A stretch of 63,561 nucleotides of DNA, taken from contig JAQWSQ010000217.1 in assembly GCA_029243145.1 (NCBI GenBank), forward strand, positions 1 to 63,561, read 5' to 3'. A model generated the notes under the pieces. It was not told where the DNA came from, made no database searches, and was given only the letters and a program-made list of their open reading frames with translations. The translations under genes were made by a program, and so were the position numbers. Position 1 is the stretch's first letter; every line of letters begins with the position of its first letter. This DNA is from Planctomycetaceae bacterium (GTDB lineage: Bacteria; Planctomycetota; Planctomycetia; Planctomycetales; Planctomycetaceae). Shown here piece after piece: positions 12,486 through 17,092 of the stretch.

Positions 12486-15020
<2,535 letters not shown>

Positions 15021-15547
15021 CAATAATCTCCTTTTAGGCCCAGTGAACGGCAAAATACCGCACCCTGACGTGTATGACCAACATTCTAGGCAATTGGCGG
15101 AAAAATTTCCTGCCCAGTTGTGGTTTTCTCACAGGCTTATTCGGTTTCTGAGGGTAATTTTTCTCTTGGACATCCCTTTCGCGAGTACCCAGATACAGAT
15201 AACTCGTCCGTAATCTGAGATCGAACGTGATGTCAGATATCTCTCATCGAAACAGATACGGCAACTCTTATGCCGAATCGAGAATGCGAGATTGCCCCAG
15301 ATGGCCCAAAAGAGACTTAATTCCAGCCTTTTCTAATCCGCACGCCATGATTTAACACAAATTATGATCTTAGTCTGTGTAACTGATTGTTGTAATTCCC
15401 ACGACACCACCTCCATTTTTACAAGTTCCTCACCTTGAATTTCGCAAGTCGAAGTTCTCCAATGTGTTGAGGAAAGACGATGCGCCAAAGTGTCGTCGGA
15501 AATCATACCTAATCGATTCAAACCGGCCTCGTCAGGATATTTTTACC
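15021..15547. other. Divergent intergenic region clpC / thiE fusion
   Basis: About 0.5 kb with no credible gene. It must hold the promoters of both divergent genes. No CIRCE-like or CtsR-like repeat was seen. An alternative TTG start for the thiE fusion lies at 15464. Confidence 0.5.
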
Positions 15548-17092
15548 GTGTACGACTCGCTGACCGCAGCCGTCTCCCGAATTCTCGACTCGGCAGCCAA
15601 TCTGGCAGGATTTCGCGAACAGACCACCATCGAACCTGTCGGTTTGCTGTGGGCGCTGATTCACGATGAATCCCGAGGCAGCGAGATCCTGAATAACGCC
15701 GTGATCACCGCGAACGCCTTTCATGTCTACTTTCCCGATTATCCCCAGGAACTCCCCGCAGATTGCCCGCCACCAATCGCCCAACCCAAGCTGATGCTCT
15801 CCACCAATAGCGAATCAATTTTTGATGCCGCGAGCCGCGCCGCCGGTGATGCCGGGCGACATATCGAGACGGGCAGCGAACATTTGTTGTACGGCTTGTT
15901 GAGGGTTCCGTCTGAAGCGCGACAGTTTTTGAATGAACGAGGACTCACCTCCTCTCAACTGGAAACCGAACTCGCTCTGCATTCGGGCTTTGAAACTGAA
16001 TCCATCGTTGTTGAAGAGAAATTGACTCTCGATGGACCAACCCCCGGACAACAAACCGATGTCTGGCGAATTCTCGATGCCGCCGCGAACCGTTGTTCGG
16101 AAGGGATCCGCGTCGTCGAAGATGTTGTTCGCTTTCGTGAAAACGATCCAACCGGCACAAAGCTCCTCAAAGAATGGCGTCACGAGTTTGCCGCTTTGAC
16201 CAAACTCATGCCGGTACGTTCGAGACTCACGACGCGCGACACTACCGGCGATGTTGGCACGTCCATCTCGACGCACGCCGAGCAACAACGAACATCGTTC
16301 ACAGACCTGCTCACGGCCAACTTCAAACGTGCCGCCGAAGCACTCCGCACAATTGAAGAGACCGGCAAACTCCTCGGACCGACACATCGGGAGATCCCCA
16401 AGCAGGCAGAAGCGTTGCGTTATCGTGTTTACACGTTGGAAAAAACGATCATCCGCACGTTGTCGGTCTCGCCTCAATTGGCCGAGGCACGATTGTATCT
16501 GCTCGTGACTGAATCACTTTGCAATACGTCACTGAAACAAGTCATCGAAGAGTCGCTCGTCAACGGCGTCGACATCCTTCAACTTCGCGAAAAAACGCTC
16601 GACTCGAAAGCGTTCCTCGACCTGGCAAAGTGGACTCGTCAGAAAACCCGCGAAGCCGGCGTGCTCCTCATCATCAACGACCGACCCGATATTGCCGTCC
16701 TCTCAGACGCGGACGGCGTCCATCTCGGCCAAGACGACATCTCCATCGCCGAAGCACGACGCATCCTCGGCCCCGACAAACTGGTTGGCCGTTCGACGCA
16801 TTCTATCGAACAAGCACAAACAGCCGTCATTGAAGGAGCCGACTATCTCGGCGTTGGCCCGGTCTTCCCCAGCGGGACGAAAGAATTCGATGAACATGTC
16901 GGGCTCGATTATGTCCGACAAGCGGTGGAAGAGATCGGCATTCCGTGGTTCGCCATCGGCGGCATCAACGAAAACAACGTGAAAAAAGTAATCGACGCGG
17001 GCGCGAACGGCGTTGCCGTGTGTGGAACGATTTGCGGATCACTCGAACCGGGCTTCGCGACGAGCCGGATGAATCAGTTCGTAAAGGGATAA
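15548..17092 (+). CDS. thiE: Clp_N - ThiD2 - ThiE fusion (thiamine-phosphate synthase)
   Basis: Three-part protein of 514 residues. Residues 1-150 resemble the double Clp_N domain of ClpC (TIEPVGLLWALI, then HIETGSEHLLYGLL). Residues about 171-305 match the helical ThiD2-type domain found before ThiE in several phyla (ILDAAANRCSEGIRVVEDVV). Residues about 310-514 are a complete ThiE barrel: DILQLREK, LIINDRPDIA, GVHLGQDD, VGRSTHS, GVGPVFPSGTK and FAIGGINENN. ThiE joins HMP pyrophosphate and thiazole phosphate to give thiamine phosphate. GTG 15548 is preferred because the protein then starts MYDSL like ClpC MYERF; AGGA lies ten bases upstream. A TTG at 15464 would add 28 residues. The Clp_N part is unusual for a thiamine enzyme. 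Confidence 0.9.
   Translation: MYDSLTAAVSRILDSAANLAGFREQTTIEPVGLLWALIHDESRGSEILNNAVITANAFHVYFPDYPQELPADCPPPIAQPKLMLSTNSESIFDAASRAAGDAGRHIETGSEHLLYGLLRVPSEARQFLNERGLTSSQLETELALHSGFETESIVVEEKLTLDGPTPGQQTDVWRILDAAANRCSEGIRVVEDVVRFRENDPTGTKLLKEWRHEFAALTKLMPVRSRLTTRDTTGDVGTSISTHAEQQRTSFTDLLTANFKRAAEALRTIEETGKLLGPTHREIPKQAEALRYRVYTLEKTIIRTLSVSPQLAEARLYLLVTESLCNTSLKQVIEESLVNGVDILQLREKTLDSKAFLDLAKWTRQKTREAGVLLIINDRPDIAVLSDADGVHLGQDDISIAEARRILGPDKLVGRSTHSIEQAQTAVIEGADYLGVGPVFPSGTKEFDEHVGLDYVRQAVEEIGIPWFAIGGINENNVKKVIDAGANGVAVCGTICGSLEPGFATSRMNQFVKG

What the first reader, a model, noticed from the sequence alone, without database searches (positions are those of the whole stretch)
15548..17092. Clp_N domain fused to a thiamine synthase beside clpC
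The first 150 residues repeat the two-part Clp_N pattern of the neighbouring ClpC ([10 protein letters not shown]-like motif) and are joined to ThiD2 and ThiE. A Clp_N domain normally binds substrates or adaptors of the ClpC unfoldase, so the enzyme could compete for, or be delivered to, ClpC. The divergent arrangement suggests that the N-domain came from a clpC duplication.
Basis: partly seen in the sequence, partly recalled or inferred. Interest (0 to 1): 0.7.

Follow-up and report, generated by a model that had tools for sequence, protein, structure and literature searches.

The report
Chaperone docking domain on thiamine enzyme
In one class of Planctomycetes the only enzyme that joins the two halves of vitamin B1 carries, at its front end, a domain normally seen on Clp chaperones; the fusion is old, kept by selection and widespread, but what the domain binds is unknown.

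Summary
Window 15548-17092(+) encodes 514 residues: a Clp_N-type double repeat (residues 1 to about 145), ThiD2 (174-300) and ThiE (316-495). Pfam finds Clp_N in the window protein and in 27 of the 29 aligned family members. Profile-profile matches to ClpC-N and ClpB-N span 139-142 columns. The N-domain is under purifying selection (dN/dS about 0.07-0.10), and a same-genus relative has a stop seven codons before the GTG start. The fusion occurs in 47 of 55 class-level genomes with a readable locus. It was not seen outside the class, where ThiD2-ThiE stands alone. It is the host genome's only ThiE and only ThiD2/ThiD.

The N-domain resembles ClpB-N more than ClpC-N (37 of 40 by profile; shared indel in 38 of 40), and the best tree does not place it within ClpC, although formal tests cannot reject a ClpC origin. 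The clpC neighbour is conserved in only 20 of 55 genomes, including ones without the N-domain. One relative lost ThiD2, has an ordinary ThiD, and kept Clp_N fused directly to ThiE.

Best reading: a non-catalytic docking module on ThiE, partner unknown; ClpC delivery is one candidate. Both structure predictions were poor and do not count.

The parts
15548..17092 (+). Clp_N-ThiD2-ThiE fusion gene (514 aa, GTG start, stop included)
   Evidence: start supported
15548..15772 (+). Clp_N repeat 1 (approx. residues 1-75; LTxxxxRxL...EPxxLLxALxxDESR)
   Evidence: hhalign; alignment; conservation table
15791..15991 (+). Clp_N repeat 2 (approx. residues 82-148; GSEHLLYGL...L..RGL), the stretch Pfam scores best
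   Evidence: (residues 109-142)
16067..16447 (+). ThiD2 (HMP-P kinase) domain, residues 174-300
   Evidence: PF17792, 127.9 bits; conserved columns
16493..17032 (+). ThiE (TMP-TENI, thiamine phosphate synthase) domain, residues 316-495
   Evidence: PF02581, 211.9 bits; own-genome hit
15021..15547 (.). intergenic region shared with divergent clpC; about 15430-15547 conserved in same-genus relatives; no Rfam match at gathering threshold, no CIRCE element
12486..15020 (-). clpC (Clp_N x2, two AAA modules, UVR), divergent neighbour; start as in L037

Best explanation
The gene encodes the cell's thiamine-phosphate synthase (ThiD2 phosphorylates HMP-P, ThiE joins HMP-PP to thiazole phosphate) carrying an N-terminal Clp_N double-repeat domain acquired once, on the stem of this planctomycete class, and later lost in several lineages. 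SHOWN by computation: domain identity, purifying selection, phylogenetic spread, retention on ThiE where ThiD2 is missing in one family, and being the sole ThiE/ThiD2 of the genome. INFERRED: the N-domain is a non-catalytic docking module that binds a polypeptide (a partner enzyme, or a peptide segment of a client) through the two-repeat helical face that ClpB/ClpC N-domains use, and so places or regulates the ThiE step. Which partner it binds is open; ClpC or its tagging pathway (McsB is present) is one candidate among others.
For: Clp_N in the window protein and 27 of 29 family members; full-length profile match to Clp N-domains; dN/dS of the N-domain close to that of the enzyme part; 47 of 55 genomes with a readable locus keep it, and the catalytic-domain tree is consistent with one gain plus about five losses (6 changes, N-minus outgroups). 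Residues corresponding to ClpB T7 and E109, proposed to contact substrate (PMC6546751), are largely kept: T/S in 97% and E in 72%. Two residues mark the fusion family: R11 (97%) and E41 (90%), which suggests a specialised surface. In G041 ThiD2 is absent, a stand-alone ThiD exists, and Clp_N is joined straight to ThiE, so the domain goes with ThiE. Published precedent for Clp_N outside AAA+ unfoldases: ClpC2 binds a ligand with it (PMC10030653), and rare vWA proteins carry ClpN repeats (PMC7159879).
Against: No binding partner is known and no structure could be predicted with confidence (pLDDT 38 and 45). The domain has been lost about five times with the enzyme intact, so it is not needed for catalysis. 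It diverges fast (about 25% mean column identity across the class), so no binding surface is strongly fixed apart from a few residues.
Confidence: 0.5

Rival explanations
1. The N-domain is a ClpC or McsB hook: it recruits ClpC (or competes with ClpC's own N-domain for adaptors or phospho-arginine clients), so that the thiamine synthase level follows proteolytic state.
For: Divergent clpC beside the gene in 20 of 55 genomes; McsB is present in the genome; a glutamate at the position of the repeat-2 phospho-arginine-site glutamate of ClpC-N (site position from general knowledge) is kept in 72%.
Against: The linkage is independent of the N-domain (5 of 8 without it are linked, 15 of 47 with it). 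The N-domain is closer to ClpB-N in 37 of 40. The repeat-1 glutamate is lost. A Clp_N domain usually binds clients or adaptors, not the Clp ring itself (general knowledge).
Confidence: 0.2
2. The N-domain is a structural or oligomerisation module that stabilises the enzyme, with no partner protein.
For: Single-copy fusion under purifying selection, kept on ThiE where ThiD2 is missing.
Against: The ThiD2-ThiE enzyme exists without it in the other classes of the phylum examined and in lineages that lost it; Clp N-domains are usually flexibly tethered binding domains (general knowledge).
Confidence: 0.2
3. Origin rival (compatible with any function): the domain descends from the neighbouring clpC by duplication.
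For: Clp_N homology; adjacency; a relative (L037) carries a fresh Clp_N-only copy of ClpC repeats between clpC and the fusion; AU tests do not reject a grouping with ClpC (p 0.16-0.28).
Against: ClpB-like repeat-2 loop (22 residues in 38 of 40 fusions and 23 of 24 ClpB, 23 residues in 12 of 12 ClpC); ClpB-like P-x-H motif in repeat 1; better ClpB profile scores; the best tree places the fusion outside both.
Confidence: 0.15
4. The domain is a decaying relic with no current role.
For: Several independent losses; high divergence.
Against: dN/dS about 0.1 in the window's genus; a nearly fixed R11 and E41 across the class.
Confidence: 0.08

Closest known systems
Bifunctional ThiD2-ThiE enzyme (NCBIfam NF002727/PRK02615, thiamine phosphate synthase; PF17792 + PF02581)
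   Same: Residues 167-510 match at 364 bits (cut-off 335); same domain order, with ThiE motifs QLREK, NDRPD, DGVHLGQ and TK conserved
   Different: About 165 extra N-terminal residues forming a Clp_N double repeat
N-terminal domain of ClpB/ClpC (PF02861 Clp_N)
   Same: Two tandem repeats; full-length profile alignment; T7- and E109-type positions largely kept
   Different: No AAA+ modules; repeat-1 EPxxLL instead of GTEH; fusion-specific R11 and E41; fused to an enzyme
Mycobacterial ClpC2 (PMC10030653)
   Same: Clp_N module in a protein without AAA+ modules
   Different: ClpC2 is a DNA-binding autorepressor that sequesters cyclomarin; no metabolic enzyme attached
vWA proteins with ClpN repeats in FtsH ternary conflict systems (PMC7159879)
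   Same: Clp_N repeats reused outside unfoldases
   Different: Conflict-system vWA partners, not cofactor synthesis

Membership tests
ThiD2-ThiE thiamine phosphate synthase (PRK02615) | ThiD2 followed by ThiE, model score above the curated cut-off | tested here: met
   364 bits against cut-off 335; PF17792 and PF02581
ThiD2-ThiE thiamine phosphate synthase (PRK02615) | Catalytic motifs of ThiE present | tested here: met
   Q345, R347, K349, N377, D378, S416, T444, K445, G471-G472 invariant in A3; their roles are from general knowledge
ThiD2-ThiE thiamine phosphate synthase (PRK02615) | Makes TMP from HMP-P and thiazole phosphate | not testable with these tools
   only ThiE and only ThiD2/ThiD found in the genome; ThiC present
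Clp_N domain (PF02861) | Sequence profile match over the gathering score | tested here: met
   29.8 bits against 20.7; 27 of 29 family members match at E <= 0.01
Clp_N domain (PF02861) | Two tandem repeats as in ClpB/ClpC | tested here: met
   hhalign over 139-142 columns
Clp_N domain (PF02861) | Clp_N fold | tested here: inconclusive
   AF2 pLDDT 38 and 45; Foldseek's top five hits are Clp N-domains but E >= 0.7 and the alignment held ClpC rows
Clp/Hsp100 unfoldase | AAA+ modules | tested here: not met
   none found by Pfam

The most novel reading that the evidence does not exclude
A class-wide, ancient coupling of vitamin B1 synthesis to protein quality control: the Clp_N domain on ThiE senses or binds the same polypeptide signals as Clp chaperones and regulates TMP synthesis or the enzyme's own turnover accordingly.
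Probability: 0.2. Interest if true: 0.8.

Novelty: new variant of a known kind. Interest (0 to 1): 0.5.

Why it matters
Clp N-domains are known almost only on unfoldases, where they receive clients. A conserved, selected copy on a cofactor enzyme throughout a bacterial class implies a use of the domain that I found no description of, and it offers a natural experiment: sister lineages with and without it, and one with ThiE alone. It could show what a Clp_N domain does without its motor.

Tried and rejected
Full-length AF2 model from a three-row alignment (pLDDT 38) and N-domain model with ClpC rows added (pLDDT 45): too poor to use; Foldseek on the latter lists Clp N-domains first but at E >= 0.7. 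Rows from genome-search loci were not used for folding because the tool admits only the window and certain loci. A later start that skips the N-domain: rejected (collinear homologues, selection). TPP riboswitch or other Rfam leader: none at gathering threshold; the only permissive hit is whalefall-1 at E 4.4. CIRCE element: none. A clpC neighbour as a precondition of the fusion: rejected. The PF08543 hit in the own genome is a PfkB-like kinase, not ThiD, judged by reading its sequence. Literature searches for this fusion found nothing, in open-licence papers only. One slip: row L009 of alignment A2 was cut at the wrong end, so A2 was used only for its consensus and rough identity; later sets were cut by alignment in scripts.

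Full report
WHAT IS THERE. Window 15548-17092 on the + strand encodes 514 residues. Pfam-A assigns Clp_N (29.8 bits, cut-off 20.7; best stretch residues 109-142, the first repeat weaker), ThiD2 (174-300) and TMP-TENI/ThiE (316-495). NCBIfam assigns residues 167-510 to the bifunctional thiamine phosphate synthase PRK02615. Single-sequence search against the PDB gives ClpC N-domains only at E of 0.005 and worse, so the window sequence alone is weak evidence. The family is stronger: 27 of the 29 aligned members match Clp_N on their own, one relative's N-domain matches the window's own ClpC-N at E 8e-9 over about 145 residues (L031), and hhalign of 40 fusion N-domains gives 98.6% (ClpC-N) and 99.4% (ClpB-N) over both repeats.

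START AND SELECTION. The frame is open 55 codons upstream of the GTG, but same-genus relative L008/L037 (80% identical) has a stop seven codons before the homologous GTG. dN and dS for residues 1-165 are 0.011/0.153 against L007 and 0.156/1.60 against L008; the ratios, 0.07 and 0.10, are like those of ThiD2 and ThiE. The domain is therefore translated and under purifying selection. dS values above 1 are rough.

SPREAD. Of 59 genomes searched (the window's relatives), 56 hold the enzyme. Among 55 loci read in detail (own genome included), 47 carry the N-domain and 8 lack it (L020, L025, L033, L035, L058, L059, L060, L062), by N-terminal length and by a profile of the fusion N-domain. In 392 genomes drawn from the phylum, every listed match that reaches into the N-domain belongs to the window's class; listed matches from other classes begin at profile position 143 or later (the list was cut, so weaker matches were not seen). 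Sixteen loci from other classes, read in full, have no Clp_N. A ThiD2-ThiE tree of 80 proteins needs six changes of N-domain state; with N-minus outgroups this fits one gain and about five losses (a quick tree with many weak branches).

ORIGIN OF THE N-DOMAIN. Profiles of ClpB-N score higher than ClpC-N in 37 of 40 fusion N-domains; the ClpC profile is narrow, which could bias this. Two characters agree with ClpB: a 22-residue spacing in repeat 2 (38 of 40 fusions, 23 of 24 ClpB, 0 of 12 ClpC) and a proline two residues before the histidine of repeat 1 (60% of fusions, 79% of ClpB, 0% of ClpC). The tree puts the fusion N-domains together (one change in 99% of bootstrap trees) outside both ClpB and ClpC, with weak support. 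AU tests reject neither a ClpC nor a ClpB grouping. Conclusion: probably one origin, ClpB-like in character, with ClpC descent not favoured and not excluded.

NEIGHBOURHOOD. clpC is divergent and adjacent (gap about 527 bp). In the 55 loci, 20 have a divergent clpC upstream: 15 of 47 with the N-domain and 5 of 8 without (some loci hold only about 1.5 kb of flank or end at a contig edge, so these are lower bounds on linkage). None of the 16 loci outside the class shows it. The neighbourhood and the N-domain are thus separable.

GENOMIC CONTEXT. The fusion is the only TMP-TENI protein found in the genome. The single Phos_pyr_kin match is a PfkB-like kinase, so ThiD2 here is probably the only HMP-P kinase. 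ThiC is present, as is an arginine-kinase-type McsB. The assembly is 97.6% complete, so an absent gene could be in the missing part.

A NATURAL DOMAIN DELETION. In G041 (locus L063) the protein is Clp_N followed directly by ThiE (40.8 and 186.5 bits). ThiD2 was not found in that genome, while a full-length stand-alone ThiD is present (277.8 bits), and clpC is still divergent upstream. The N-domain therefore stayed with ThiE.

MECHANISM. Shown: identity, selection, spread, retention on ThiE. Inferred: a docking role. Positions equivalent to ClpB T7 and E109, which have been proposed to contact substrate (PMC6546751), are largely kept, while R11 and E41 are characteristic of the fusion family. 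That pattern suits a binding surface re-specialised for a new partner. Delivery to ClpC is possible but has no direct support.

KNOWN BACKGROUND. ThiD2 phosphorylates HMP-P but not HMP or toxic analogues (PMC12345177). Clp_N outside unfoldases is known in mycobacterial ClpC2 (PMC10030653) and in rare vWA proteins (PMC7159879). Searches of open-licence papers found no report of the thiamine fusion; subscription papers and domain-architecture databases were not available, so it may already be listed there.

LIMITS. No confident structure; taxon names of most genomes are hidden; the class and family labels are the tool's group codes. That the group is a class of Planctomycetota rests on the titles of L036 and L037 and the tool's kinship labels.

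Noticed in passing
L037:4924-5760 (-): A 278-residue protein of three Clp_N stretches, a near copy of ClpC repeat 1 plus diverged repeats, lies between clpC and the fusion in the same-genus genome G001 but not in the window.
   Followed up: partly
L063:4366-5490 (+): Clp_N fused directly to ThiE without ThiD2; that genome has a stand-alone ThiD instead.
   Followed up: yes
L116 (G048:C314, about 58.3-59.7 kb): A 472-residue frame with three double Clp_N modules next to a clpC gene.
   Followed up: partly
window 15430-15547: The leader upstream of the fusion is conserved in same-genus relatives although an in-frame stop in L037 makes it non-coding; no Rfam family matches above threshold.
   Followed up: partly
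window 12486-15053: The ORF finder's TTG start for clpC is probably too early; the relative's ATG (MYERFTD) corresponds to about 15020.
   Followed up: yes
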